Source: Streptantibioticus cattleyicolor NRRL 8057 = DSM 46488
GTDB taxonomy: Bacteria > Actinomycetota > Actinomycetes > Streptomycetales > Streptomycetaceae
NCBI RefSeq assembly: GCF_000240165.1
Contig: NC_017585.1
Span: forward strand, 1,674,001-1,738,000
DNA: 64,000 bases
Direction: 5' to 3'
Part shown: positions 14,750 through 51,691 of the stretch, piece by piece
Position numbering within the stretch: the first letter of the stretch is position 1
Layout of the letters: every line of letters begins with the position of its first letter
Made by a program: the position numbers and the translations under genes
Notes under the pieces: generated by a model
What the model was told of the DNA's origin: nothing
What the model saw: only the letters and a program-made list of their open reading frames with translations
Databases searched by the model: none

Positions 14750-15683
14750 CCCGGTGGTCTCCGGCCCCCCGCACCGCAGGCCGAGCCGACGGCTGGAACG
14801 TATCCCACTCCAGGTCTTCGTCGGTCACCACGCGCCCGGGTCGTACGGCGGCGGAAGCCTCCTGAGCGTGTCGAGTCGGCTGACGGCGCTGTGGAGTTGG
14901 CGGGCGTCGCGAGGCGACGTGGCCGTATCACGGTGTCCGGAAGGGCTCGGGCGTCCAGGGGATCACCGCCGGCACCAGTGCGGGTGGCCGCGATCGTGGT
15001 CGTACCACAACTGACGCCGTCGACCCCTCGGAAGAAGTGCCGGACGCACCGGCGGGCGCACCTCCGGAGCGGACCTCGGCCGACGGGCCGGGCCAGGGCG
15101 GGCCGTCGGAGCGGGCCGCCGGAACTCGGCGGCACGCGCGGGCGTCACCTCGTGGCGGCGTCGTAGCCGGCTCGGGCGTCGGCGATGCCGGCCCGGTGAC
15201 GCTGCGCCCGTCCGACAACTCCGGTCGCACGCCGGGCGCCGTCGGGCCGGCCGGGGAGGGGGCAGTGTGCCAGGCCGGGCGGAACGTGTCCGGAGAACCG
15301 GTGATCCCGCCCGCGCGGCCGGCCGCGCCGCGTACTGTGACGGGCGCCTGACCAGGTCGGCCGCCGCGCGCCACCACGCGGCAGAGCGCCCGCCGCCGCG
15401 TCACACTGGCAGCGAGCCGAGGAGGTGAAGGGTCCGTGAGCGTCGCCGCCGCGTTCACAGCGGGCGATGGACGGTCGAGGACGTCCCGCACTGGCCGTCC
15501 CTCCCGGTGGCCGGCCGGAGGACGAAGCCGGTCCGGTGCCGGGGCCGGACGCCGTGCCCGGGTCGGCCGGGGTCGGGGCTCGCGCGGGTGACGGTGGCGT
15601 TCCGTCCGCGTTGGGCATACGCAACATCGGGCCCGCACGACACAACAAGGCGGGGCCGCGCTCGATCACGGGAGGCCGGGAAC
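14750..15683. other. Long intergenic stretch, no supported gene
   Basis: More than 900 bases without a convincing gene. Open frames on both strands exist but are proline/arginine/glycine-rich, lack recognisable domains and match no strong ribosome site. An upstream extension of the PP2C gene frame (from 15507) has the same composition and is not included. It may contain the phosphatase promoter and decayed sequence. Confidence 0.5.
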
Positions 15684-17450
15684 ATGGCAGGGGCGAAGGG
15701 CGTCGGGGCTGATCGGCAGCAGCGGGCAGATCACCCTCCCCGGCTCGCCGAGGCGTTGGAGGCCATCGGCGCCGGAGCGTATGTCGTCGACGAGCGGGGG
15801 CGCATCGTCGCGGCCAACAGCCGCGCGGAGGAACTGCTGGGCCGCCCCGTGGCGGACCTCACCGGGCAGGACGCCCACGAACTGCTGCACCGCGGGTGCC
15901 AGGGGCAGGCGCTGCCCGCCACGCAGTGCGGCATGCGGCAGGCGTTCCACGCCGGGCGGACGGCGCAGGGCGGAGAGGAGCACTTCGCCCGCCCGGACGG
16001 CTCGCTCCTGCCCGTCTCCTGGCTGATCACCCCCTATTCCGCCGACGGCCACCGCACCTGCACGCTGGTGATCTTCCACGCCTCCGGACACCCGCACGGC
16101 CCCGGGCCGGGAACGGCGCAGGCCGGCGAACCGCTGAGCGAACTGGAGCGGCTGGCCCTGCTGGCCGAGACCACCACCCGGCTGACCTCCACCCTGGACG
16201 TCGACGAGGCGCTGCGCCGACTGGTGGACCTGGTGCTGCCCCGGCTGGCGGACTGGGTGGTGATCGACCTGATCACCGAACACGACGAGGTGTGGCGCAC
16301 CGCCGTGGTCCACACCGCCGGCGACCGCCTGGTGCACCACGACGACCTCCAGGGGCCGATGCCGCCGGTGCCGGAGGACTCGCCGATGCCGTTGTCCCGG
16401 GCGCTGCGCGGGGTGGCCTCCGCCCTGGCCGGGCCGGAGACCTACCGGCGCCCCCCGGACTCCGGCATCGCGGTCGAACAGCGCCGGCTCTTCGACACCA
16501 CCGGCATCCGTTCCGCGGCGATCGCCCCGATCCGCGGTGCCCGGGACGTCCTGGGAGCCCTCACCCTCGGCCGCGCCGAGACGCCGGGCGGCTTCACCGC
16601 CACCGATCTGCCGCTGATCGAGGACATCGCCCGCCGGGCCGGGCTGGCGCTCGACAACGCCCGCCTCTACCAGCGCCAGCGCGCGGTCGCCGAGACCATG
16701 CAGAACCACCTGCTGCCGCAGATGCCGCGCGTGCCCGGCCTGCAACTGACCGTGCGCTATCTGCCCGCCCCCGACGCCTCACAGGTCGGCGGCGACTGGT
16801 ACGACGCCTTCACCCTGCCCGACGGTGCCACCGCCCTGGCCGTCGGGGACGTCATGGGCCACGACCTGGAGGCCGCCGCGGGCATGGCACAACTGCGCAA
16901 CATGCTGCGTGCCTACGCCTGGTCCCAGCAAGGACCTTCCAGCCGGATCGTGGAATGCCTCGACGAGGCGATCACACCCATCACCGATGTCTCCATGGCC
17001 ACCCTGATCTTCGCCCGCGTCACCCGCACGGGCGCCGACCCATGGCAGGTGACCTGGACCAACGCGGGCCACCCCCCGCCCCTGCTGGTCACCCGGGACG
17101 GCCTGACCCGCTACCTCACCGACGGGCACGGCCTCCTGCTCGGCACCGGGGTCCACACACCCCGCCCGGACGCCACCGTCGTCCTGCCGCCGGGATGCAC
17201 GCTTCTGCTCTACACCGACGGCCTCGTCGAAACCCCCGGACAAAGCCTCGACGACGGTCTCGACCAACTGCGCCAGCACGCCGCCGCGCTGGCCCACCGC
17301 CCCCTGCCGTTCTTCACCAACCAACTCCTCGAACGCGTCCAGCCGCCCGGCCTCGACGACGTCGCACTTCTCGCCGTGCGCACACCGTACCCGTCAAGTG
17401 GCGCCGACGGAGGGTTGGCCGGCGGTGACGGGGTAGGCGCCTTGCCGTAA
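15684..17450 (+). CDS. PAS-GAF-PP2C (SpoIIE-type) serine phosphatase
   Basis: Signal-transduction phosphatase of 588 residues that would dephosphorylate anti-anti-sigma-factor-like partners. A PAS domain lies at about residues 28-140 (GAYVVDERGRIVAANSRAEE). A GAF domain lies at about 165-335 (LTSTLDVDEALRRLVD to LALDNARLYQRQR). The C-terminal PPM/SpoIIE phosphatase runs from about 350 (GGDWYDAF, VGDVMGHD, TNAGHPPPLL, LLYTDGLVE), with the metal-binding aspartates present. There are no membrane segments. The ATG at 15684 has GGGAGG nine bases upstream. Many such proteins form the multi-sensor phosphatase repertoire of Streptomyces. The histidine-kinase-like ATPase at 37452 is the opposite type of partner, but linkage is only inferred. 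Confidence 0.93.
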   Translation: MAGAKGVGADRQQRADHPPRLAEALEAIGAGAYVVDERGRIVAANSRAEELLGRPVADLTGQDAHELLHRGCQGQALPATQCGMRQAFHAGRTAQGGEEHFARPDGSLLPVSWLITPYSADGHRTCTLVIFHASGHPHGPGPGTAQAGEPLSELERLALLAETTTRLTSTLDVDEALRRLVDLVLPRLADWVVIDLITEHDEVWRTAVVHTAGDRLVHHDDLQGPMPPVPEDSPMPLSRALRGVASALAGPETYRRPPDSGIAVEQRRLFDTTGIRSAAIAPIRGARDVLGALTLGRAETPGGFTATDLPLIEDIARRAGLALDNARLYQRQRAVAETMQNHLLPQMPRVPGLQLTVRYLPAPDASQVGGDWYDAFTLPDGATALAVGDVMGHDLEAAAGMAQLRNMLRAYAWSQQGPSSRIVECLDEAITPITDVSMATLIFARVTRTGADPWQVTWTNAGHPPPLLVTRDGLTRYLTDGHGLLLGTGVHTPRPDATVVLPPGCTLLLYTDGLVETPGQSLDDGLDQLRQHAAALAHRPLPFFTNQLLERVQPPGLDDVALLAVRTPYPSSGADGGLAGGDGVGALP

Positions 17451-17495
17451 CCGTACGGCCCGAGCGCAAGGCCGGGCCGGAGAGGATGGCGCAAC

Positions 17496-17669
17496 ATGAG
17501 TGGTGCGGACAAGGCCGACAACGCGACCAAGAAGGCCAAGGGCAAGCTGAAGGAGGCCGCGGGCAAGACGGTCGGCAACGAGCGTCTTACGGCCGAGGGC
17601 GAGGCCGACCAGGTGGCGGCGGACGCCAAGCAGGCAGGGGAGAAGATCAAGGACGTCTTCAAGGACTGA
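17496..17669 (+). CDS. CsbD family stress-response protein
   Basis: Very small hydrophilic protein of 57 residues, rich in Lys, Ala, Gly and Glu. It starts MSGADKADNATKKAKGKLKE and ends KIKDVFKD, the normal form of the CsbD family (general-stress proteins of unknown biochemical role). The ATG is preceded by GGAGAGG. It lies 45 bases after the PP2C gene on the same strand and is followed by a strong hairpin, so it may be co-transcribed with the phosphatase. That fits a sigma-factor stress circuit, though this is inference. Confidence 0.9.
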   Translation: MSGADKADNATKKAKGKLKEAAGKTVGNERLTAEGEADQVAADAKQAGEKIKDVFKD

Positions 17670-17685
17670 CCTCCTCCTCGAACGA

Positions 17686-17730
17686 AGGGCGGGGCCGCGG
17701 TCGAACTTCCGGGACGCGCGGCCCCGCCCT
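17686..17730. terminator. Bidirectional terminator between csbD-like and DUF4241 genes
   Basis: Perfect 14-bp inverted repeat, 17686-17699 with 17717-17730, with a 17-base loop, between two convergent genes that end at 17669 and 17745. Position and symmetry fit a shared factor-independent terminator. Confidence 0.75.
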
Positions 17731-17744
17731 CTCGTGCCGCCGTG

Positions 17745-18431
17745 TCAGCAGGGATCGTCCTCGTCGAACAGGGCGTCGAAGTCGGTAAGGAAACAGGCGA
17801 CGTCACCGTCGGCGGTGCGACCGATCCAGGTGGGGTAGACGCCGTCGCCCCAGCCGGTGCTGAAGACGACCACGGCGTGCCCGTCATCCTCCACGGCGAG
17901 GGTGACCGGGTCGGGCGTGCGCTTGGGCCCCGGGGCCCCGGCGTCGTCCTCCCACATGGCGGAGACCACGCGATCGGCGAAGTCTTCCTCCTCGCCGATG
18001 GCTTCGAAGGTCTGGGCATCGACGAAGCATCCGGTGCCGCCGTCGACGGGGTAGCCGAAGTACTCGTCGTCGGAGAGGCCCGCCGCGTCCTGCCCCGGCC
18101 TGAGGGCCAACTCCCAGGAGACCACCGGCTCGTCACGTATCTCCAGCCGCGCCGCGGCCACGCGGGTGTCCGTGACCTTCCCATCCTCACCGACCACGTC
18201 CACCATGACCAGCACGACCGGATAGGTACCCGGAGCCACCCGTTCGTCGAACGCCAGCTTCTCGGCGTCGTCGAAGCCGCACAGGAACGGCTCCATCGCG
18301 ATGACGCGCCCGGAAGGCAGCGACAGGGGAACGCCGGGTACCACCCGTACCCGCAGGCTGTCGCCGTCGGTGGACGGATGAATGGCGCCAGGCTCGAAAA
18401 GCCCTATGAAGTCAGGGGCCGCGAGGGGCAT
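17745..18431 (-). CDS. DUF4241 domain protein
   Basis: Cytoplasmic protein of 228 residues that matches the DUF4241 pattern: GTYPVVLVMVDV, VAAARLEIRDEPVVSWELAL, GYPVDGGTGCFVDAQTF, and the C-terminal STGWGDGVYPTWIGR. No catalytic function is established for the family. Members are often found near contact-dependent or polymorphic toxin loci as possible immunity proteins, but no toxin is seen here. The ATG has GGGAGAG upstream. It is strongly acidic at the C-terminus (LFDEDDPC). Confidence 0.85.
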   Translation of the reverse strand: MPLAAPDFIGLFEPGAIHPSTDGDSLRVRVVPGVPLSLPSGRVIAMEPFLCGFDDAEKLAFDERVAPGTYPVVLVMVDVVGEDGKVTDTRVAAARLEIRDEPVVSWELALRPGQDAAGLSDDEYFGYPVDGGTGCFVDAQTFEAIGEEEDFADRVVSAMWEDDAGAPGPKRTPDPVTLAVEDDGHAVVVFSTGWGDGVYPTWIGRTADGDVACFLTDFDALFDEDDPC

Positions 18432-18735
18432 GGTCTCTCCCGTGCTGTGAACACCGGCCGTACGGCCGGTGGCCGAGAACGTACCGTGCCGCGCGGCGGT
18501 GCGGGCCCGGCAGAGCAGGGATTCGGCCTGTTGGGCTGAGGGATTCTGCCCGCCAAGCCGTTCCCCGGCGTCAGGCGGGGCGGAGTTGGGTGGAGCGTTG
18601 GCAGGGCTCGCCGGGGAATTGTGCAGTGCGGTGGTCGGTGGGGCGCGGGTGGGGTAAGGAGGGGAGGACGGGGATCGGCGGGTGGCCGGTCCGTTGGCGA
18701 GGGGTGGTCCGGCGGTGTTGTCGGAGCGTGGTGGT

Positions 18736-40916: not shown

Positions 40917-42065
40917 TCAACTGCCGCGAAGGTCGGCGCAAAGGGCGTCGACGGCCTGCGGCGTCACGTGCGGCATGGCCACGAGGTGGGCGCGGTCGCC
41001 CTGGGTGGCCAGGTGCCAGGTGGCGCAGGTCCGCGGGCCGGGGCGGTCGAACGTCACGGTCAGGGCCCCGGGAAAACGCTCCGGGTGGGCCCCCGCCGCC
41101 GCCAGGGCCTCGGTGGCGTACGCGGCGGTGCGCCGGCACCGGTGGACGGTCTCGCGCACGCCACGGGTGCCCGCCTCGCGCAGCCTGCACCACAGCAGCG
41201 CGGCCGCGAGGCCGCTTCGGGAGCAGCCCAGGGTGTGGTCGGGGGCGCCGAGGTACTGTCCGGTCGGCGCCGGGGGCAGGTACCGACGGGGTGTCAGGAC
41301 CACGCCGCACGGCACCGGACAGCCCAGCAGTTTGTGCCCGCTCACCGACACGCTGTCAGCGCCGTGGGCGAGGTTCCAGGCGGGCTCCGGGTGGCAGAAC
41401 GCCGCCACCAGACCGCCGAGGGCGGCGTCCGCGTGGAGGTGGACGCCACCGGCCGCCAGCGCGGCTTCCCGCAGCGCCGGCAGGTCGTCGACGGCTCCCC
41501 GCATCACGGTGCCGATGGTGGCCACGACCACCGCGCCGTCGCCGGGCCGGCCACCCCGCGCGTCCCGATGCCTGCGGCACAGGCGGGCCAGCGCCGACGG
41601 ATCCATCGTCCCGTCGTCCCGGCAGGGCACGGTGACGGTCTCCATGCGCAGGATGGTGGCTGCCTTGCGGACGCTGTAGTGCGCGTCCGCCGAGAGGTAC
41701 ACCGGCGCCCGGGGGAACCGGTGCCGCGCGACGAACAGCCCGAACAGGATGCCCTCGCTGCCGGAGGCGGTGACGTACCCGTAGGTGTCCCGGTCGCCGC
41801 CCGCGATGCCGGTGAACCAGGAGAGCACCGCCCGCTCGAAGGACTTCACGTCGTTGCCCGAGTCGTCGTGCTCCGACGGATCGCCCGCGTTGTTGATGAG
41901 CATGGACAACAGGCTGTGCGCGGCCGAGGCGTCCCACGCGAGGTTGGCCGGGAAGCCGAGCATCCGCGGTACCCGCTGCCGCAGTTCGCCGACCATGGCC
42001 GTCACCACGGACCACACCTGCTCGGCGGCGACACCGTCCTCCTCGATCCGCAACGGGCTGTTCAC
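40917..42065 (-). CDS. PLP-dependent group II amino acid decarboxylase (histidine-decarboxylase-like)
   Basis: 382-residue fold-type I PLP enzyme similar to bacterial histidine/aromatic amino acid decarboxylases. The PLP lysine is K245 in SVSVSGHKLLG. The pyridine-nitrogen aspartate is D213 in HLHADAALGG and the stacking histidine is H129 in SADAHYSV. The phosphate-binding part is YVTASGSEGILFGLF. It would turn an amino acid into an amine with loss of CO2; the amino acid is not predictable. The GTG start (42065) overlaps the end of the acyltransferase gene, so it is the last gene of the terpene-P450-acyltransferase operon. Decarboxylases are unusual in terpene clusters and suggest an amine-bearing product. 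Confidence 0.87.
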   Translation of the reverse strand: MNSPLRIEEDGVAAEQVWSVVTAMVGELRQRVPRMLGFPANLAWDASAAHSLLSMLINNAGDPSEHDDSGNDVKSFERAVLSWFTGIAGGDRDTYGYVTASGSEGILFGLFVARHRFPRAPVYLSADAHYSVRKAATILRMETVTVPCRDDGTMDPSALARLCRRHRDARGGRPGDGAVVVATIGTVMRGAVDDLPALREAALAAGGVHLHADAALGGLVAAFCHPEPAWNLAHGADSVSVSGHKLLGCPVPCGVVLTPRRYLPPAPTGQYLGAPDHTLGCSRSGLAAALLWCRLREAGTRGVRETVHRCRRTAAYATEALAAAGAHPERFPGALTVTFDRPGPRTCATWHLATQGDRAHLVAMPHVTPQAVDALCADLRGS

Positions 42066-43357
42066 GCACGGTCACTACCCGGAAATGGAATGAGATATTC
42101 CGACCGCTTCCCCCGGCTCGTCCAGGACCCTGGCGAGCTGATCGGCGAGGGAGCGGGCCAGACCGGCCGCCTGGGCGGCGTCGAACCAGGCGCGCGGGGT
42201 GGCCAGGTGGAACCCCAGGCACCGGCGGGTGCGGGTGACGAAGACGGTGGGAACGGGGCCGGGGGCGGGGCGTAGGCGAACAGCCCGGTGACCGCCGTGC
42301 CGGGCGGCGGGTCCAGGCGGACCGGACAGGCGGCCAGATTGCTGACCATGGCGGTGAACGGCAACGGCGCGGGACCGGCCAGCAGGCGCCCGGCGGCCAT
42401 GACCTGCCGTTCGGGCCAGGCGTCGGCGAGGGCGGAGGCGAGCTGTCCGGCCACCGTCCGTGCGATCGCCGCCGGGGCATCACCCGCTGCCACCGGTGCC
42501 GTGACGGGTACGAGGGACGCGGCTTGCATGATGTGGTGGCGGGGGACGGGCGGTGCCGTGCGGCTGCGCAGATCGACGGTGACACCCAGGGCCAACGGCA
42601 GGGGCCCGGCGTCAGGGCCGAGCCGGGCGCGGGCGGCGAGCATGATGAGCGCGCAGACCAGGGCGGCGGGTGTGGTCCCCGCTTCGCGAGCGGTCCGGTA
42701 GAGCCGTACCGCCTGCGCGCTGGTCAGCTCGGTGGTGTGCAGGTGGGCGCCGTGCGGGGGACCGGTCCCGGGAGGGGTGCCGCGGGCCGGGAGCCGGGCG
42801 GGTGCGGGCTGTCCGGCCGAGGCCGCTTCCTGGCGGGCGAGCCAGGCGTCGATGTCGTGCCGAGGGTGCCGCCGCGCCAGCAGTTCGTCGACGGCGCGGG
42901 GGAGTTCCGCCCTGGTCGGAGGCGGAGCCGGGCGCACTCCGGCCAGGAGCGCGGTATAGGTCTGCCACAGGCGGGACAGAGCCGTCAGGGCGGACATCCC
43001 GTCGCTGACGGCGTGGTGGAGGGCGAAGGCGAGCAGGTGGGTGTCGTCCGGCCGGTGGACCACGGTGGCCCGCATCAGGGGTTCGTCCAGGGCGAAGGGC
43101 GCGTCGACGGGCCACGGGTCATCACCCGCCGACTCGCGCAGCGGTGGCCGGCGGCGCGGTGTGGTGACCAGGCTGGGGCCACCGACGGTCCCGGTGATGC
43201 GACAGGTGAGGACCGGGTGCCAGGAACACATCAGTTCCATGGCACGTGCCAGAGCACCGGTGTCGAGGCGGCCGTGGACGGTGACGCCGGTCACCGCCGG
43301 GGTGCCGGTGCGCGCCAGGGCGGCCTCGCCCGGGGAGAGCGAACGGTGGGTTCCCAT
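42062..43357 (-). CDS. Condensation/PapA-type acyltransferase, frameshift near 3' end
   Basis: Condensation-superfamily acyltransferase of 431 residues as it stands. The active site HHAVSDG is intact, and a CAT-like N-half (GRLDTGALARAMELMCSWHP) and C-half (GVTVDLRSRTAPPVP) are present. After TGLFAYAPPPA the frame becomes Pro/Ser-rich nonsense. The neighbouring frame reads PVPTVFVTRTRRCLGFHLAT and continues with a normal family C-terminus to a TAG at 42077-42075. One missing C in the GGCCCC run (plus-strand G run about 42255-42270) would restore a 427-residue protein. So this is either a sequencing slip or a true 3' lesion. The ATG has GGAGG upstream. It would join an acyl group to an alcohol or amine. 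Confidence 0.78.
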   Translation of the reverse strand: MGTHRSLSPGEAALARTGTPAVTGVTVHGRLDTGALARAMELMCSWHPVLTCRITGTVGGPSLVTTPRRRPPLRESAGDDPWPVDAPFALDEPLMRATVVHRPDDTHLLAFALHHAVSDGMSALTALSRLWQTYTALLAGVRPAPPPTRAELPRAVDELLARRHPRHDIDAWLARQEAASAGQPAPARLPARGTPPGTGPPHGAHLHTTELTSAQAVRLYRTAREAGTTPAALVCALIMLAARARLGPDAGPLPLALGVTVDLRSRTAPPVPRHHIMQAASLVPVTAPVAAGDAPAAIARTVAGQLASALADAWPERQVMAAGRLLAGPAPLPFTAMVSNLAACPVRLDPPPGTAVTGLFAYAPPPAPFPPSSSPAPAGAWGSTWPPRAPGSTPPRRPVWPAPSPISSPGSWTSRGKRSEYLIPFPGSDRA

Positions 43358-43420
43358 GTGCGGGTCGTCCTCCTTCGGCGGTGCTTCGGCGGTGGCCTGC
43401 CCGGGGTGCGCGGCGGGCTG

Positions 43421-44524
43421 CTACGGTCGCCCACCGAGCGGATCCCACCACCACGCGATGGAGGGGATCGCGGGCGGGGAGGTGTCGGCGGGCGGGTCGG
43501 TGTCGCGGGAGGCGGTGGTGGTGACGGCGCCGGGGGTGCGGCCGTCGGGGTTGCGGTAGCGGTCGGCGGTCAGACCCCATTCGAGGTTGCCGGGCAGCAG
43601 GTGGCAGAGGTGGTCCAGATAGGCACGCAGCGGCGCGCTCGCGTCGGGCAACACCCGTTCGCGCAAGGCGATGAAGCGGTGGGTGAGCCGGTTGCACAGG
43701 CACACCGCCGCGCGGAGCGCCTCGGGCCGGCCGCAGCGGTTTTCCCGGCGCAGGATCTCCACCAGGCCGAGTCCCGACGGTGCGGTGCCTTCGGCGCGGG
43801 CGACCCACAGTTCCTTCCCGTAGGAGAAGAGGTCGTCGTCGAAGGCGGCGGTGGTGAAGGCCAGTTCGGTCAGAGCACGCACCTCGGGGGAGGACAGCTC
43901 ACGGTCGGGGATCTCCGCCCCGTCCACGATCTCGGCCCAGGCCAGCGTGGCCGCGCCGGCCGCCGTGTGCTGCCGCATGTGGGCGTAGTCGTTGAGGGCC
44001 GGGGTACTCCGCGCGGCCCGGTGGCCCAGTTCCCACGCAACGGCCAGGAACCACGCCCGGTGCGCCTCGGCACAGCGGCGCATCTGCGCGGGGGTGGCCC
44101 ATCGGCGCGCCCGCAGCGCCAGGTCCCGCACCGGCGCCAGCATCGTGTCACCGGGACCCTCCAGGCGCGCGTCCGGTGCCTCCAGCACCCGTACGATCCT
44201 GGTGGCCAGGTCCGCGAACCGGGCAGCGCGCCCGGTGGCCGGACCCTCGTCGCAGTGCACGTCGTCGAAGTGGAACATCACGGTGCACCAGTCGACCGCC
44301 AGTTGCAGTCGGTCGGTCGGCGAGTGCGGCATGATCCGTCCGTAGAAGCCGGGGCAGTCGTTGCCGCGCATACGGGCGCGCTGTTGTGGCGTCAGTTCCA
44401 GGTCGAAGCCGTCGATCCAGTCGGCGGTCCGGCGGGCCAGCACGGTCTCGTCGGGATGCCGGGCAGTGGGCAGCGGACAGTAGCGCGGCGGGATCTCCAC
44501 GGACAGCGTGCCGGGGACCGGCAT
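43421..44524 (-). CDS. Class I terpene cyclase
   Basis: 367-residue terpene synthase of the bacterial class I alpha-helical type, which ionises and cyclises a prenyl diphosphate with three magnesium ions. The acidic metal motif is DDVHCDE (residues 87-93). The NSE triad is DDLFSYGKE (D230, S234, E238), with aspartate in place of the first Asn, as in many actinobacterial enzymes. The effector Arg region and the C-terminal RY pair ([10 protein letters not shown]) are present. The ATG has AGGAGGTG upstream. It is not a two-domain geosmin-type enzyme and has no C-methyltransferase partner, so it is not a 2-methylisoborneol synthase. It lies 66 bases after the P450 and 63 before the acyltransferase. 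The product is unknown; sesqui- or diterpene is possible. Confidence 0.92.
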
Positions 44525-44590
44525 GGTTCACCTCCTGCCGTGTCGGGGGCGACGACCGGGCGGGGCCACGGCGTGCTCACCCGACGGTCC

Positions 44591-45958
44591 TCACTTCGGG
44601 AGTCCGCGTCGGGCCGAGGTCTCCATCAGCAGCCGTCGGGGGCGCAGCGCGGTGGAGAGCGCCACCGGGCGGACGTCACAACCGGGCGCGGGGCGCAGCC
44701 GCCAGCGGCTGACGATCGTGGCCAGCAGCAGAGTGCATTCGGTGAGGGCGTAGGCCTCGCCGGCGCACTTGCGGGCGCCGCCGCCGAAGGCGGTGAAGGC
44801 CCCGCGAGGCAGGGTACGGGCGCGTTCCGGCAGCCACCGGTCCGGATCGAACTCCTCGGGATCGTCGTACAGTTGGCGCCCGCGGTGCACCGCGGGGGCG
44901 CAGAAGGCGACGGTGGTTCCCGGTGGCAGGCGGTGGCCGCCCAGCTCCGTCTCGGCGGTGGTGACCCGCGTGAACAGCCAGCCTGGCGGGTACAGGCGCA
45001 GCGCCTCGGTGATCACCCGGCCGGTGTGGGCCAGAGCGGGGACGTCGTCACCACGGGCGGCCCGGCCGGCGAGCACCGCGTCCACCTCCCGCTCCAGCCG
45101 GTCGAGCGCTTCGGGGTTCCGGTCGAGCAGGTAGAGCGCCCAGGACACGGCGGCGGTGACGCTGTCCGAGCCGGCGGTCAGCATGGTGAGGACCTGGTCG
45201 TGGATCTCGGTGTCCGTCAGGCCGGTTCCGCACCCGGTGCCGTTCTCGTCGTCCTGGGCGGTCATCAGGGCGGAGAGCAGGTCTCCGCGGTCGGTGCGGT
45301 CGCGGCGGCGCTCGGCGACCAGGTCGTCGATGCCGCGTCGCAGGTCGGCCACGGCGCGGTCGAACCGCCGGTTGACCGGGAGGGGCAGCCGTAGCAGTGG
45401 CGCGGGGACGAACATCCGGGCGGTGAGCTGCTGGAGCACCGTCTCCACCGAGGTCCGGAACCGGTCCACCACCGCATCGCCGGCCCGGGTGGCGAACAGG
45501 GTGCGCAGCACCGAGCGCAGAGCGGCCCCGAACAGGGACCGGTAGGCGTCGATCACCCCGCCGTCGTCCCAGCGCTCCGTCAGCGCGGCGGCCTCCTCCT
45601 CCATCACCGCCGCATAGCCCTTCAACCGCGCGGGCTGGAAGGACGGCTGGATGAGCCGGCGCTGCCGGCGGTGCTCGCCGTACGGGCAGGCCCCGACCCC
45701 GTTGCCGATCGTCGCGCGCACCCGGTCGAAGAACGGACCGCCCTTGTCGAAGAGCCGGTCGTCGGTGAGCACCCGCCACAACAGCTCGGGATCGCACGGC
45801 ACTTGGGCCCGCACCGGGCCGAGGCGTACCTCGACCAGATCACCGTGACCGGACAGCGACTGCGCGAACCGCAGAGGACGGCGCATCAACGGCCACGCGT
45901 GGCCGACCATCGGGAACGCCCCAGGCACCACCGGCGTCGCGCAGGTCCTCGAGGCCAT
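44591..45958 (-). CDS. Cytochrome P450, terpene-cluster type
   Basis: 455-residue class I-type P450 similar in layout to the long actinobacterial terpene oxidases. The I-helix oxygen motif is AGSDSVTA, the K-helix ExxR is EALRLYPP, the PERF-like region is FDPDRWLPER, and the heme ligand is in FTAFGGGARKCAGEA. A proline-rich N-terminus (TPVVPGAFPMVGHAWPLMRRP) replaces a membrane anchor. ATG 45958 has GGAGGGGATCCG upstream. As first gene of the four-gene operon it would oxidise the terpene made by the next gene, giving an alcohol that the acyltransferase could modify. Redox partners are not encoded nearby. Confidence 0.92.
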   Translation of the reverse strand: MASRTCATPVVPGAFPMVGHAWPLMRRPLRFAQSLSGHGDLVEVRLGPVRAQVPCDPELLWRVLTDDRLFDKGGPFFDRVRATIGNGVGACPYGEHRRQRRLIQPSFQPARLKGYAAVMEEEAAALTERWDDGGVIDAYRSLFGAALRSVLRTLFATRAGDAVVDRFRTSVETVLQQLTARMFVPAPLLRLPLPVNRRFDRAVADLRRGIDDLVAERRRDRTDRGDLLSALMTAQDDENGTGCGTGLTDTEIHDQVLTMLTAGSDSVTAAVSWALYLLDRNPEALDRLEREVDAVLAGRAARGDDVPALAHTGRVITEALRLYPPGWLFTRVTTAETELGGHRLPPGTTVAFCAPAVHRGRQLYDDPEEFDPDRWLPERARTLPRGAFTAFGGGARKCAGEAYALTECTLLLATIVSRWRLRPAPGCDVRPVALSTALRPRRLLMETSARRGLPK

Positions 45959-47167: not shown

Positions 47168-48547
47168 TCACCCCTGACGGTCCACCGACGCCGCAGCCGT
47201 CAACGGGGCGAAGACATGCCGCAGATCGAGCACGGCGTCGGCGCCCATCACCCACGCCAGCGGGGCGTAGCGCGTCGTGATCCCGGCCGGCGGCTGGAGC
47301 AGCGGGTCGCCGGCGGTGTCCTGGGGCCATTCGACGGTGCCGGTGAGGGTACGCGCCGGGACGAGCCAGTGGTCGCCGGTGCGGTAGGTGCCGCCGGGTT
47401 CGAACCACACCTGGACACCGTCCTCCAGGTCGGTCCAGGCGCCCTCGGTGATCGGCGGGGCGCCGTCCTCCGCCCCGGTCGCGGGGTGGTCCCAGCGGCG
47501 CAGGAACGGATGGCGGGCGGCGAGCCGTCCCACCCCGGGCGCCGGCTCGCCGGACAGCCGCACCCGGCGCCCGGGCAGGTCCACCTCCTCCACCCGCGAC
47601 AGCGGGAACGCCTCCAAGCGGCTGACGGTGGCGGAGTCGGCCACCTCCACCAGGTCGCCGGGGTCGAGGGTGAGCCTGTCGTCGTCGCCGAGCGTGGCCA
47701 GGTCCACCCAGGTGCCCTCGACGGCGGTGACCGGGAAGACCACGCTGCCGTTCTCCCGCGACCACATGAAGGAGGCCCCCTCGGCCGCCGTGCCACCACG
47801 GTGGACCTCGATCCGGTGGAGCTGGTTCTCCGGCCCCCGGTAGGCGGCGTCCGGACGGGCCAGGCACGGCTCGTCGTCCGCGCCGTCCGGGCGGCGGGTG
47901 CGCACCGCCAGCCGGCCCCCCGCCCGCTGACGGGGCCGCGCCCAGGCGTCGAAGGCGGCCCGCACGGTCTCCGCGCCGCCGTCCGGCACCGGCAGCTCAC
48001 CGGCGTCCAACGGCAGCACCTGCCACACCACCTTGCGCCACACCACCGTGTCCGGCAGCGCCGCGCCCAGCGCCACCTCCCGGATCGCCGGGTCCTCCAC
48101 CGCGCTCACCGAGCGCTCCCACACCTTGAGGTGGGCCAGGAACGGGAACCGGTCGGGCAGCCGGTCACCGGCGCGTTCCGGATCGCGGTAGGCGTCCGGC
48201 TGGTCCCAGTACGTCCATCCGGCGGGCGGCGGCGGAACCGAGGGGTCCGGGGCGTCGGCGTCCCGCGCCGCCGCGTCGTCCGGGGGCACCGCGGTCCCGG
48301 GCGTCGGGCGGGTGGCGTCGCACAGGATGCCGTCCACGTAGTAACGGCCGCCGCCGATGGCCAGGTCGGCGAGGTCGTGGTGTCCGGCCCGGTAGCCGAT
48401 GGCGAAGCCGGCCGCGCCGGCCGGTCCGCCGTGCCGCCCGATGAGGTCGGCGGCGAGGGTGCGGGCGCGGTGCAGTTCGATCGCCGCCCGCTCGTTGGCG
48501 TCGGCGTCCGGTAGTTCGCGTTCCAGCAGCAGCGCCAGGTCGGTCAC
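47168..48547 (-). CDS. DUF6519 phage-tail-associated protein, N-terminus altered
   Basis: About 459-residue protein of the DUF6519 type, which occurs with phage tails and contractile injection systems. The family core DADANERAAIELHRARTLAAD is followed by GGRYYVDGILCD. Later comes YRGPENQLHRIEVHRGG, then ASFMWSRENGSVVFPV. The normal N-terminus (about 18 residues before the VLLDADANE region) is not found. The best start is GTG 48547 with no clear ribosome site, and the frame stays open upstream with unrelated, Pro/Arg-rich sequence. So the gene may be 5' truncated or rearranged. It lies in a trio with the holin-like and lysin genes. Its function is unknown; a structural role in a tail-like particle is likely for the family. 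Confidence 0.7.
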   Translation of the reverse strand: MTDLALLLERELPDADANERAAIELHRARTLAADLIGRHGGPAGAAGFAIGYRAGHHDLADLAIGGGRYYVDGILCDATRPTPGTAVPPDDAAARDADAPDPSVPPPPAGWTYWDQPDAYRDPERAGDRLPDRFPFLAHLKVWERSVSAVEDPAIREVALGAALPDTVVWRKVVWQVLPLDAGELPVPDGGAETVRAAFDAWARPRQRAGGRLAVRTRRPDGADDEPCLARPDAAYRGPENQLHRIEVHRGGTAAEGASFMWSRENGSVVFPVTAVEGTWVDLATLGDDDRLTLDPGDLVEVADSATVSRLEAFPLSRVEEVDLPGRRVRLSGEPAPGVGRLAARHPFLRRWDHPATGAEDGAPPITEGAWTDLEDGVQVWFEPGGTYRTGDHWLVPARTLTGTVEWPQDTAGDPLLQPPAGITTRYAPLAWVMGADAVLDLRHVFAPLTAAASVDRQG

Positions 48548-48815
48548 GGTGGCTGGCGCGGTGCCGGTCCTGGACCGGCTGGGTGAGGTCTGGCAGCCCG
48601 CGGCGAACGGCTTGGAGACCGTACCCACCGGGTCCGGCCGCTGCGGGACGAGGAACTTCCCCCCGGGCCGAAGGCCGTGCCGCAGTTGCCCACCGTCTCC
48701 ACGAAGTCCGGCCGGTCGGGGCGGGCCGACGCCCGGTGAACAGCTCCAAGGCGCTGCCCGGAGCGTGATCCTCGGCCGTGGCCGAGCGCGTCTCCTTCCC
48801 GCCGGCCGTACGCCG

Positions 48816-49100
48816 TCAGCCGCCTTCGGGCAGCGAGGAGTAGTCCACCGGCGTCGGTGCCGCGGCCTTCGGCTGGTAGGACGGCGGCCGGGCCGCCCCC
48901 AGGAACCAGCCCCAGCGGCGGCCGAGCCGCGCCTCCAGGTACCGGAAGACGGCGTAGTACACCGTCCCGAACCCGGTGGTCAGCGCGGAGGAGACGGTGG
49001 CGTCGTCGATGCGCACCCCGAGCCTGGCGGCCTGGACGGCCAGGAACGCCACGACGTACGGCACGCAGGTGCGCCACAGGGACAAGGCGAGTTGATACAT
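48816..49100 (-). CDS. Holin-like small membrane protein
   Basis: 94-residue protein with a membrane segment near the N-terminus (LALSLWRTCVPYVVAFLAVQ) and a second hydrophobic stretch (VSSALTTGFGTVYYAVFRYL). A positively charged turn LEARLGRRWGWFLG and a soluble Pro-rich tail follow. ATG 49100 has GGAGG upstream. Small membrane proteins of this form lie beside endolysin genes in actinobacteriophages and are taken as holins or holin-like proteins. Here it lies 33 bases after the lysin gene, matching that layout. Function is inferred from topology and context only. Confidence 0.7.
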   Translation of the reverse strand: MYQLALSLWRTCVPYVVAFLAVQAARLGVRIDDATVSSALTTGFGTVYYAVFRYLEARLGRRWGWFLGAARPPSYQPKAAAPTPVDYSSLPEGG

Positions 49101-49133
49101 GAGCCCTCCGTATCGCAACGGACCGGCGGCCGG

Positions 49134-50843
49134 TCAGCGCACGGTGAAGCCGTGCGCCCGGCCGAGCCGGGTGAGGGATTCGGTGCCGGGGATGCCGTCG
49201 GCCATCTGCCCGGAGTAGCCGTAGCGCCGCTGAAGCTCCGCATAGGCTGTGATCGTCCTGGTGCCGAACGAGCCGTCGGCCCACTCGCGGTCCAGCAACC
49301 CCTCGTCGACCAGGGCGAGTTCCACCGTGAAGACATCGTCCGGGTGGCTGGTGGCACCCTGCGGCGCCCCGGGGTCGTGGTGCGCGGCGGCCACCACGTC
49401 GGCGTGCGAGACGGACGCCAGCGGGATCGGCCCGCCGAAGAGTTGGCGCAGCGACGTCTCGCCCGGTATGCCGTCCGCGTCCGCCCCCCGGTACCCCAGA
49501 CTGCGCTGGAAATCGGCGTAGTTGAGGGTGTCGGCCTGCGTCCAGTCGGGGCCCGGGCCCGCGCTGTAGTGGCTGCCGAAGCCGGCCGCGACCAGGGCCC
49601 GGCCGACCGCGGTGACGTGCGCCCCCCGTGCCCCGTCCCCGTACCGGAGCCCGCCGATCACCACGGAGCGGCCGGCCGGCGGTGTCGGACCGGAGGGCGG
49701 CGCCGGGGTGCCCGAACCGGCCGGACGCGGCGCCCCCGCCCGCACCCACGCGTAGAGCGTGTCACCCGGGCACTCGGTGGCGTAGCCGTCCCGGTGCCCC
49801 TTGATCTCGTCGCCGGCCGGGCCGTCCTGGCGGCAGAGTTCGATGGCGTCGCGCAACCCGTTGAGCTGGTCGTCGGTGGGACGGGTGTCGCCTTCGGAGC
49901 CGACCAGTCCGCACACCGCGTAGTGCGCCTCGTTGAGCGGCACGTCACCGTTGGCGCTGTTGCGGCGCTTCAGGCCGCGCCCCTCGAAGACGTATCCGTG
50001 CTCGCACACCACGAAGCTGTACCCGATGTCGGACCAGCCGTCCACGTCCATGTGCGAGTCCTGGATCCTGCGGACGTAGGCCGGGCACGTGTCGTGGGCA
50101 CCGAAGGTGTACCGGGTGCCGAGGTAGTGGATCTTCACCCCGGCCCGCGGACCGGCGTAGGGGATCGACCCGTTGGGCTCCCGCCACGGCCGCGCCCCCC
50201 ACTCCTGCCGGGTCACCAGGCGCAGCCCCGACCAGGGCTTGGGGGCGGGCGTCGGGGGCGGGGCGGGGGTCGGCGTGGGTGTGGTGCGGTGTCCGGCCCA
50301 GGCGCGCAGTTCGTCCAGGGTGCCGTGGTAGACGTCGGTGTCCAGCGGGGTGTCGGTGTACTGGTGGAACGTCCAGGTGGCACGGATGCGTGGTGCGCCG
50401 GCCGGTACGTAGTCGGCGATCCAGAGGAAGTCACCGGCGTTGTCGTCGGTGCGCAGCCAGTAGTCCCGGTTGGTGTAGAGCCCCACCCGGTTGTGCGGGT
50501 AGCGCTTCTTGACCGCCGTCAGCCACTGGTTCTTCACCGCGGTGGCATGGGTGTCGGAGACCCCCTGCCCGTACGGTTCGAAGTCGAGCACCAGCAGCTC
50601 ACCGGCGGGCACCGTGCCGACCACCCGGCAGAAGTGGTCGATCTCGCCCTGCACCGGGTTCTCCGCGTGCAGGAAGTGGTAGTGCCCGGTCACCAGGCCG
50701 CGACGGCGGGCCTCCGCCAACTTGTTCCGGTACCCGGCCTGCTCGGTACGGGCGCCCTCGGTGGCCTTGATGAACACGAACTGCGCGTCGCCCGGTATCC
50801 CCGACTGGTAGTCGGACACGTCGTAGCCTTTTGCGTTCGCCAT
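49134..50843 (-). CDS. Two-catalytic-domain lysin: GH25 muramidase plus PGRP amidase
   Basis: 569-residue peptidoglycan hydrolase. A GH25 muramidase covers residues 1-200 (KGYDVSDYQSG, LLVLDFEPYGQG, WTFHQYTD). A Pro/Thr linker follows. An N-acetylmuramoyl-L-alanine amidase of the PGRP type covers about 235-410 (VTRQEWGARPW, VKIHYLGT, GHRDGYATECPGDTLYAWV with zinc ligands). Two peptidoglycan-binding-like repeats lie at the C-terminus, each containing ADGIPGT or similar and RYGYSG/SLGYRG. There is no signal peptide: residue 1 is followed directly by the catalytic domain. So export would need a holin or tail-like delivery. ATG 50843 has GGGGGAGG upstream. The protein likely comes from a phage or tail-like particle locus. 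Confidence 0.9.
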   Translation of the reverse strand: MANAKGYDVSDYQSGIPGDAQFVFIKATEGARTEQAGYRNKLAEARRRGLVTGHYHFLHAENPVQGEIDHFCRVVGTVPAGELLVLDFEPYGQGVSDTHATAVKNQWLTAVKKRYPHNRVGLYTNRDYWLRTDDNAGDFLWIADYVPAGAPRIRATWTFHQYTDTPLDTDVYHGTLDELRAWAGHRTTPTPTPAPPPTPAPKPWSGLRLVTRQEWGARPWREPNGSIPYAGPRAGVKIHYLGTRYTFGAHDTCPAYVRRIQDSHMDVDGWSDIGYSFVVCEHGYVFEGRGLKRRNSANGDVPLNEAHYAVCGLVGSEGDTRPTDDQLNGLRDAIELCRQDGPAGDEIKGHRDGYATECPGDTLYAWVRAGAPRPAGSGTPAPPSGPTPPAGRSVVIGGLRYGDGARGAHVTAVGRALVAAGFGSHYSAGPGPDWTQADTLNYADFQRSLGYRGADADGIPGETSLRQLFGGPIPLASVSHADVVAAAHHDPGAPQGATSHPDDVFTVELALVDEGLLDREWADGSFGTRTITAYAELQRRYGYSGQMADGIPGTESLTRLGRAHGFTVR

Positions 50844-51049: not shown

Positions 51050-51691
51050 ATGGCGGACACCGCGGCGATCTACGGGTTGGTCGGGGCGATAGGCGGGGCC
51101 CTGCTGGGGGCCGGAGCGGCTGTCGCCGTGCCTGTGCTTCAGAACAGAAGCGCGGCGCGCGCTCGCCGTTGGACGCTGGCGGAGGCCGAGATCACCCGAC
51201 TGGTCAAGATCCGGAGCGGCGTCCGTGCGGTGCTCCAGCTCCAGGCTGAAGCCGTCGACGCGCTGGCGGCCGGACGGGAAGTGGCGGCCGACGGTTTCGC
51301 GGCCGCCATGTCCACTGCCTTCTCCGACCTGCGGAAGGCGGCGGACGACGCTCTCATCGACGGCCTCGTGATCCCGCAGTCCGGGGGCGGTGACCTCCCG
51401 GCCTACGGATGGAGTCCGCCGAGCGGCGGGGGTCGGATCGGCACGCGAGGACGGCTCCACCAGGAAACGATCACATCTCCGATCGTGGTGACCATGCAAC
51501 GCCTCAACGACGACATCCGCTCCGCCTTGGACTCTGCTTCGGAAGGGGTCTCCGCCGCGACCGTCGACAGCCTGCGGGGCCAGGTCGAAGAAGTCGAGCG
51601 TCTCCGCGCCGAACTGATCTCGTTGCTCCTGGACCGCGTCGAGACGGCGCGAGGTCGCACCGGCGCACCCCGCGACACCGACACCGCCTGA
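51050..51691 (+). CDS. Hypothetical protein with N-terminal membrane anchor and coiled coil
   Basis: 213-residue protein with no recognised family. Residues 5-30 (AAIYGLVGAIGGALLGAGAAVAVPVL) form a membrane segment, and the rest is helical and soluble with heptad-like stretches (ITRLVKIRSGVRAVLQLQAE; QVEEVERLRAELISLLLDRVE). The start is uncertain: ATG 51050 lacks a good ribosome site, and an in-frame start exists at 50831. It is divergent from the lysin gene and may belong to that region, but no function can be assigned. Confidence 0.6.
   Translation: MADTAAIYGLVGAIGGALLGAGAAVAVPVLQNRSAARARRWTLAEAEITRLVKIRSGVRAVLQLQAEAVDALAAGREVAADGFAAAMSTAFSDLRKAADDALIDGLVIPQSGGGDLPAYGWSPPSGGGRIGTRGRLHQETITSPIVVTMQRLNDDIRSALDSASEGVSAATVDSLRGQVEEVERLRAELISLLLDRVETARGRTGAPRDTDTA

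What the first reader, a model, noticed from the sequence alone, without database searches (positions are those of the whole stretch)
47168..50843. Phage-tail-like and lysis-like trio on the chromosome
Seen: a DUF6519 protein, a 94-residue holin-like protein and a two-domain lysin without signal peptide, contiguous on one strand, with no capsid or replication genes in the window. Established: DUF6519 accompanies phage tails and contractile injection systems; holin next to lysin is a phage lysis layout. Inference: remnant or outlying part of a tail-like particle, or a domesticated lysis unit.
Basis: partly seen in the sequence, partly recalled or inferred. Interest (0 to 1): 0.52.

Follow-up and report, generated by a model that had tools for sequence, protein, structure and literature searches.

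The report
Scar of a deleted injection machine
Three odd phage-like genes in a soil bacterium are the two ends of a once complete protein-injecting nanomachine whose middle, about 26,500 bases, was lost, leaving an apparently intact cell-bursting gene pair and a fused fragment.

Summary
The trio is real and is a deletion scar. Six other genomes of the family (one with the cluster split over two contigs) carry orthologues of the same lysin and holin at the head, and of DUF6519 at the tail, of one contractile-injection (eCIS) cluster with sheath, tube, Pvc16_N, AAA, eCIS_core and baseplate genes between. In the five clusters on one contig, 26.4-26.6 kb lie between the points joined in the window. 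The window keeps lysin and holin whole, about 240 bp of decayed sheath gene (four indels), and DUF6519 without its first ~24-28 residues, fused in one frame with the sheath remnant. No other copy of the missing part was found; the genome has a separate, distant CIS. DUF6519 was published in 2026 as "eBAP5", a fibre-to-baseplate anchor of an actinobacterial eCIS subtype. Perhaps new: close members of this subtype carry a peptidoglycan hydrolase, either GH25-amidase lysin plus holin before the sheath, or an amidase behind DUF6519, which suggests release by lysis. The window lysin is under strong purifying selection over its branch; whether the lysis pair is still used is open.

The parts
49134..50843 (-). 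Lysin: GH25 muramidase + Amidase_2 + two PG_bind_siph stretches; head gene of the ancestral eCIS cluster, intact
   Evidence: 72-77% protein identity to nine named-genome loci; Shine-Dalgarno-like GGGGGAGG before ATG; GH25 D-x-E (LDFE) kept in 11 of 11 aligned copies (meaning of the motif recalled)
48816..49100 (-). Holin-like small membrane protein, 94 aa, 33 bases behind the lysin, intact
   Evidence: phrog_10742 5e-9; 63-81% identity to eight other family genomes; phage Hiyaa homologue gp31 directly behind endolysin gp30; hydropathy
48509..48747 (-). Decayed remnant of the tail sheath gene (about residues 196-291 of 658 in G052), indels of -1, +2, -1 and -50 bases, and a 9-base gap at the joint
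   Evidence: pairwise alignment firm from 48711, start at ~48747 from the multiple alignment
48503..48520 (-). Deletion joint: somewhere in these bases; GGACGCC (48503-48509) occurs in both partners; 26.39-26.61 kb missing relative to five intact clusters
47168..48509 (-). DUF6519 (eBAP5, fibre-to-baseplate anchor) without its first ~24-28 residues
   Evidence: PMC12923769 passages
47168..48628 (-). Chimeric ORF P0001: ~40 sheath-derived residues (part of them out of the old frame) fused in frame to DUF6519; GTG start without a clear Shine-Dalgarno sequence

Best explanation
The trio is what is left of a complete eCIS cluster of the DUF6519/eBAP5 subtype. In intact relatives the order is lysin, holin, sheath, tube, T4-type baseplate protein, Pvc16_N, AAA, a ~2,100-aa eCIS_core protein, CIS_tube, a tail-X-like protein, a 392-aa protein, spike (Phage_base_V), baseplate J, two further large proteins, DUF6519. 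In the lineage of the window a deletion of roughly 0.6-0.8 kb removed the start of the sheath gene, another of ~26.5 kb joined sheath codon ~290 to DUF6519 codon ~25-29 (shown by alignment; the number, order and mechanism of the events are inferred; the shared GGACGCC suggests end joining at microhomology). Inferred function: in intact clusters holin and lysin open the producer cell so that assembled particles get out, and DUF6519 anchors or forms the fibre at the baseplate. In the window no particle of this type can be built; the lysin-holin pair may still lyse cells or may be idle; the fused DUF6519 ORF has lost the family's conserved start and is probably not functional as an anchor.
For: Holin orthologues at 71-81% identity lie 27.5-27.7 kb upstream of DUF6519 on the same strand in five genomes (G052, G113, G136, G191, G066). 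Blastn of the 16-kb window locus hits those clusters only in lysin-holin, in a sheath block and in DUF6519. 10 of 10 loci with a full-length lysin of this type (68-90% to G052, or G052 itself) and the holin continue into the sheath gene. 26,391-26,610 bp separate the joined points in 5 of 5 clusters with both ends on one contig. Sheath remnant with four indels, and GGACGCC present in both partners, at the join. In the own genome 14.5 kb and 18 kb of the G066 cluster hit the window blocks; other hits are the separate CIS (sheath 66%, AAA 76%) and six short matches of 34-163 bp. Sheath, gp25, Phage_base_V and Pvc16_N each occur once in the genome, all at contig 1, 1.3607-1.3727 Mb, the separate CIS. 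Intact clusters hold Phage_sheath_1C, gp19 tube, T4_baseplate, Pvc16_N, AAA, eCIS_core, CIS_tube, Phage_base_V, Baseplate_J over their cut-offs (tube and T4_baseplate scanned in G066, the others in G052).
Against: No intact copy from the same genus is held (the genus has one genome), so the ancestral state comes from other genera of the family. The DUF6519 ORF is open over 446 codons and its window branch is far from neutral (omega 0.149, 2dlnL 21 against 1), which a long-dead gene would not show; the deletion must be fairly recent or the ORF still used. Window flanks outside 50876-47196 do not align with the flanks of the intact clusters, so the locus is not at the same chromosomal place. Searches scored only 40 of 1769 and 40 of 1565 first-look candidates, and the 738-aa search (nothing found) had no positive control; the family searches scored all candidates. 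L131 (Catenulispora MAG, 65% lysin over residues 1-374), L132 (55% over 182-568) and G046 (lysin pieces 41-53%, holin 51%) have such relatives without a sheath match in the DNA held.
Confidence: 0.93

Rival explanations
1. Domesticated lysis unit: after loss of the particle the lysin-holin pair (perhaps with the fused ORF) was kept by selection for programmed lysis or wall turnover in development. Compatible with the deletion history; it is a claim about what happened afterwards.
For: Lysin and holin intact with good ribosome sites; lysin omega on the window branch 0.044 against 0.085 elsewhere, no relaxation; the sheath remnant of the same locus carries four indels while lysin (573 codons read), holin (94) and DUF6519 (446) are open to their ends and align throughout; the 1-base and 50-base losses in the sheath remnant together restore the frame into DUF6519.
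Against: The window branch includes time before the deletion, so constraint need not postdate it; with G066, which has the whole cluster, as test branch the lysin value is the same (0.046). Sheath-remnant omega (0.19, rough 95% range 0.05-0.8) cannot be told from that of DUF6519 (0.149); DUF6519 tends upward (2dlnL 3.6 against one ratio), while G066 as test branch gives 0.062, as after a recent loss. No adjacent trio was seen elsewhere.
Confidence: 0.3
2. Outlying fibre and lysis genes that serve the genome's other CIS at contig 1, ~1.358-1.373 Mb.
For: That CIS has sheath, two gp19 tubes, gp25, Phage_base_V, Pvc16_N and baseplate J, and neither lysin query matches in the 30 kb around it.
Against: Its sheath is 32-40%, its AAA 40% and its J protein 32% identical to the DUF6519-type cluster; no isolated DUF6519 among 38 loci fetched; the window DUF6519 lacks the conserved N terminus.
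Confidence: 0.06
3. Assembly artefact that collapsed an intact cluster.
For: Only one assembly was looked at; no reads were available.
Against: The join lies inside a contig of 1.8 Mb in an 8.1-Mb assembly of two contigs rated 100% complete; the sheath remnant has diverged and carries indels, which a collapse would not make.
Confidence: 0.02
4. The adjacent trio is an ancient minimal phage lysis and tail unit into which the particle genes were later inserted.
For: Little beyond adjacency; the holin family also sits behind an endolysin in phage Hiyaa and behind an amidase beside siphovirus tail genes in G055.
Against: A sheath fragment and a DUF6519 without its start point to a larger cluster as source.
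Confidence: 0.01

Closest known systems
DUF6519 (eBAP5) eCIS subtype of Actinobacteriota (PMC12923769, passages read)
   Same: Same DUF6519 family; intact relatives carry eCIS marker families that the paper names (DUF4157, here under the Pfam name eCIS_core, an equation I recall; Pvc16_N; CIS_tube; DUF6519)
   Different: The window keeps only DUF6519 without its start, fused to a sheath remnant; the term search for 'holin' in that paper gave 0 and 'lysin' matched only 'lysines', so lysis genes are not discussed under those words
Streptomyces cytoplasmic CIS (type IId; PMC10020575 passages; PMC10066040 and PMC12237407 abstract starts in a listing only)
   Same: Contractile tail-like particle; a CIS with sheath, two tubes, gp25 and J is also in this genome (that it is type IId is my inference, not tested)
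   Different: Distant in sequence (32-40%), no lysin match in its 30 kb; described in print as cytoplasmic
MAC arrays and R-tailocins with endolysin/holin release (PMC8910223 and PMC10598620, passages read)
   Same: Tail-like clusters that carry endolysin/holin pairs for release by lysis
   Different: In Gram-negative producers; here GH25-amidase lysin and a phrog_10742-type holin. No sequence comparison with them was run
Streptomyces phage lysis genes (Hiyaa gp30-gp31; endolysin of Sycamore)
   Same: Amidase and wall-binding part 56% identical in Sycamore; holin homologue (32%) directly behind the endolysin in Hiyaa
   Different: No phage record covers 80% of the lysin in one place (0 of 223 with a match); no phage record matches DUF6519 by tblastn

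Membership tests
DUF6519 / eBAP5 | Match over Pfam PF20129 cut-off | tested here: met
   201 bits against 22.4
DUF6519 / eBAP5 | Conserved N-terminal start of the domain | tested here: not met
   Model positions 1-24 and the first ~28 residues of the G052 orthologue have no match, sheath-derived residues instead
eCIS locus (functional), at the window | Sheath, tube, baseplate, AAA and eCIS_core genes in one cluster | tested here: not met
   Only a ~240-bp sheath remnant at the window locus; sheath, gp25, base_V and Pvc16_N each once in the genome, in the separate CIS; DNA searches
eCIS locus, in the intact relatives | Sheath, tube, baseplate, AAA and eCIS_core genes in one cluster | tested here: met
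Phage-type lysis cassette | Muralytic enzyme with catalytic and wall-binding domains next to a small membrane protein | tested here: met
Phage-type lysis cassette | Holin forms membrane lesions and lysin degrades wall | not testable with these tools
   Needs expression and lysis assays
Prophage | Capsid, terminase, integrase genes | tested here: inconclusive
   None among the proteins scanned of the intact clusters or the 11 window flank ORFs; not every ORF was scanned
R-type tailocin | No eCIS_core-bearing protein; kills bacteria without injected protein | tested here: not met
   Intact clusters have an eCIS_core protein (2.1e-24); that tailocins lack it is recalled; killing not testable here

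The most novel reading that the evidence does not exclude
The remnant is not dead: the lysin-holin pair, and perhaps the in-frame sheath-DUF6519 chimera, have been kept after loss of the particle as a stand-alone self-lysis module, i.e. a contractile injection system reduced to its release device.
Probability: 0.12. Interest if true: 0.62.

Novelty: new member of a known kind. Interest (0 to 1): 0.42.

Why it matters
It shows that adjacent holin, lysin and DUF6519 genes on a chromosome need not be a working unit: they can be the two ends of a lost injection machine, readable base by base. The comparison also shows that the DUF6519-type CIS of streptomycetes commonly carries its own wall hydrolase, in one of two places: of 26 close loci 20 have an amidase right behind DUF6519, 5 have the lysin-holin pair in front of the sheath and 1 has neither. 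That predicts release of this CIS by lysis, unlike the cytoplasmic CIS of the same bacteria, and it can be tested directly.

Tried and rejected
Rejected: outlying genes of the genome's own CIS (too distant); phage origin of DUF6519 (no phage match); hidden second copy of the missing genes. A simple codon-position count seemed to show the sheath remnant decaying while DUF6519 did not; the codon model showed that 77 usable sheath codons cannot separate the two, so I do not rest on it. The codon model is my own script; its optimiser was limited to 40-100 iterations and convergence was not checked apart. Motif checks: LDFE in 11 of 11; my other GH25 pattern matched only 2 of 11 (the rows printed for the others have F for Y), and the amidase pattern was typed with wrong spacing and matched none (the window reads GHRDGYATECPG in the printed alignment). 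The two lysin positions are not strictly exclusive: G066 has the front lysin-holin and also another Amidase_2 gene behind DUF6519, which does not match the rear amidase of the others in the tblastn. Whether the rear-amidase clusters have a holin of their own was tested only with the G052 holin query (no match). tRNA and Rfam scans of the window found nothing. Not done: structure prediction, scan of all window genes for capsid proteins, a tree of the whole cluster.

Paper searches. Of the listings I read passages of PMC12923769, PMC10598620, PMC10020575 and PMC8910223; all others only as listing with abstract start. 'Perhaps new' for lysis genes in the DUF6519 subtype rests on these open-access searches only.

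Full report
WHAT IS THERE. The three ORFs lie as described on the minus strand: lysin 49134-50843, holin-like protein 48816-49100, DUF6519 ORF 47168-48628. The window is bases 1,674,001-1,738,000 of contig 1 of an 8.1-Mb two-contig assembly; no other genome of its genus is held. The lysin carries GH25, Amidase_2 (just under its cut-off) and two PG_bind_siph stretches; its amidase part resembles peptidoglycan recognition protein chains (4e-18) and its N-terminal part GH25 lysozymes (4e-9) in the PDB. The holin-like protein matches phrog_10742 (5e-9) and six Streptomyces phage records at 30-38% identity, four annotated 'membrane protein', two (VWB) 'hypothetical protein'; in phage Hiyaa the homologue lies directly behind the endolysin. 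DUF6519 occurs in one gene of the genome and in no phage record.

RELATIVES. DUF6519 occurs in 52 of 297 family genomes searched, the own one included; all 52 are also in the list of the 186 of 297 genomes with a Phage_sheath_1 match (overlap read from the two lists; for the own genome that match is the separate CIS). I fetched 38 DUF6519 loci of 37 of the other 51 genomes, and later G113. All 38 have a baseplate-J-like match (in L050, cut by a contig end, only the weaker secondary one); 26 have a DUF6519 at least 58% identical to that of G052, G052 itself counted.

THE HOLIN GIVES THE KEY. P0002 rings in 35 of 297 genomes, the own one included. Eight other genomes have it at 63-81%. In five of them (G052, G113, G136, G191, G066) it lies 27.5-27.7 kb upstream of DUF6519 on the same strand. 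G200 has both but on different contigs; G212 has no DUF6519 match and its holin contig is 7.5 kb; G055 is a different thing, an Amidase_2 gene and the holin beside siphovirus tail genes, with no CIS gene match in 58 kb. Reading the clusters: lysin, holin, sheath, gp19 tube, T4_baseplate, Pvc16_N, AAA, eCIS_core protein, CIS_tube, a tail-X-like protein (weak, under cut-off), a 392-aa protein, Phage_base_V, Baseplate_J, two large proteins (seen as such in G136 and G191), DUF6519. Tube and T4_baseplate were scanned in G066, the others in G052. A scan of named genomes with the lysin gave 22 loci, nine of them 72-77% identical over the full length. With G191 this makes ten loci with lysin and holin; 10 of 10 go on into the sheath gene. 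Weaker cases do not: L131, L132 and G046 show no sheath match; the remaining 11 loci were not examined.

THE JOIN. Blastn of the 16-kb window locus hits the five intact clusters in lysin-holin, in a sheath block of ~125-200 bp (in G113 with a second piece) and in DUF6519 from its interior, and nowhere else in them. Alignment of ten intact sheath genes with the window shows the remnant from ~48747 to 48509 with indels of -1, +2, -1 and -50 bases. Roughly 0.6-0.8 kb between holin and remnant is also missing (estimated from coordinates). The second break joins sheath LLERKLRALPDA to DUF6519 LDADANE. Its exact place is uncertain within 48503-48520: a 9-base gap lies there, and in G191 the DUF6519 match reaches 48520. 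GGACGCC stands in both partners in G191. The points are 26,391, 26,502, 26,608, 26,506 and 26,610 bp apart in G052, G113, G136, G191 and G066. The ORF given as DUF6519 therefore begins with ~40 residues of sheath origin. The 1-base and 50-base losses cancel in frame, so the last sheath part and DUF6519 lie in one frame.

IS THE REST ELSEWHERE? The first 14.5 kb of the G066 cluster hit the window blocks, the sheath and AAA region of the genome's other CIS (66% and 76%) and six short matches of 34-163 bases, three of them to the lysin part; the remaining 18 kb hit only DUF6519 in the window (only the best 40 candidates were scored in each). Family searches find one sheath, one gp25, one Phage_base_V and one Pvc16_N in the whole genome, with all candidates scored, all at contig 1, 1.3607-1.3727 Mb. 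That CIS also has two gp19 tubes and a J protein. So the middle is lost, not moved.

AFTERMATH. A two-ratio codon model written for this purpose gives, for the window branch against the rest, omega 0.044 against 0.085 for the lysin (2dlnL 69 against omega 1; 6.6 against one ratio), 0.149 against 0.085 for DUF6519 (2dlnL 21 and 3.6), 0.10-0.13 against ~0.04 for the holin (2dlnL 3.1-4.7 against 1, 85 codons, so neutrality is barely or not rejected), 0.19 against 0.06 for the 77 usable codons of the sheath remnant. As control, G066 as test branch gives 0.046 for the lysin and 0.062 for DUF6519. Trees were built per gene and differ in where the window falls; subsets of 6-7 taxa were used of the 11 (lysin, holin), 7 (DUF6519) and 11 (sheath) available. 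Reading: the lysin shows no relaxation, DUF6519 and sheath remnant perhaps a little, the deletion is probably recent. This neither proves nor excludes continued use.

TWO PLACES FOR A LYSIN. In 10 further DUF6519 clusters read through to the sheath neither the front lysin nor the holin is found in front of the sheath; a ~291-aa Amidase_2 protein with a wall-binding end stands right behind DUF6519 in 7 of 10. Over the 26 close loci it is there in 20; five of the other six have the front pair (G052, G066, G136, G191, G200), G241 has neither. The 12 distant loci have no such amidase. G066 has both the front pair and another amidase behind DUF6519. Thus a wall hydrolase belongs to 25 of 26 close members examined.

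LITERATURE. PMC12923769 (passages) names DUF6519 as eBAP5, a baseplate anchor of fibre proteins, tied to Actinobacteriota and to an eCIS subtype previously missed; the term search found no holin there. Endolysin/holin pairs in other eCIS and tailocin clusters are known (PMC8910223, PMC10598620, passages). I therefore file the find as a degraded member of a known kind, with the lysis module of that subtype as the part that may be new.

Noticed in passing
window 40917-45958, minus strand: Terpene synthase (Terpene_syn_C_2, 1.4e-33) beside a cytochrome P450 (1.6e-68), followed by a PapA/condensation-type acyltransferase and a pyridoxal-dependent decarboxylase: looks like a small terpenoid gene cluster.
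   Followed up: no
L041 7993-8868 and equivalents in 19 further loci: Amidase_2 protein with wall-binding end directly behind DUF6519 in 20 of 26 close DUF6519-type CIS clusters, an alternative lysin position.
   Followed up: partly
G123 contigs 1 and 4: Five copies of the holin family in one genome at 45-49% identity; several prophages would explain it, not checked.
   Followed up: no
G101, oriented block, 14963-18688: Two sheath-gene matches in tandem in one distant DUF6519-type cluster.
   Followed up: no
window 51050-51691, plus strand: 213-aa protein with an N-terminal hydrophobic stretch (read by eye), divergent from the lysin, no Pfam family.
   Followed up: no
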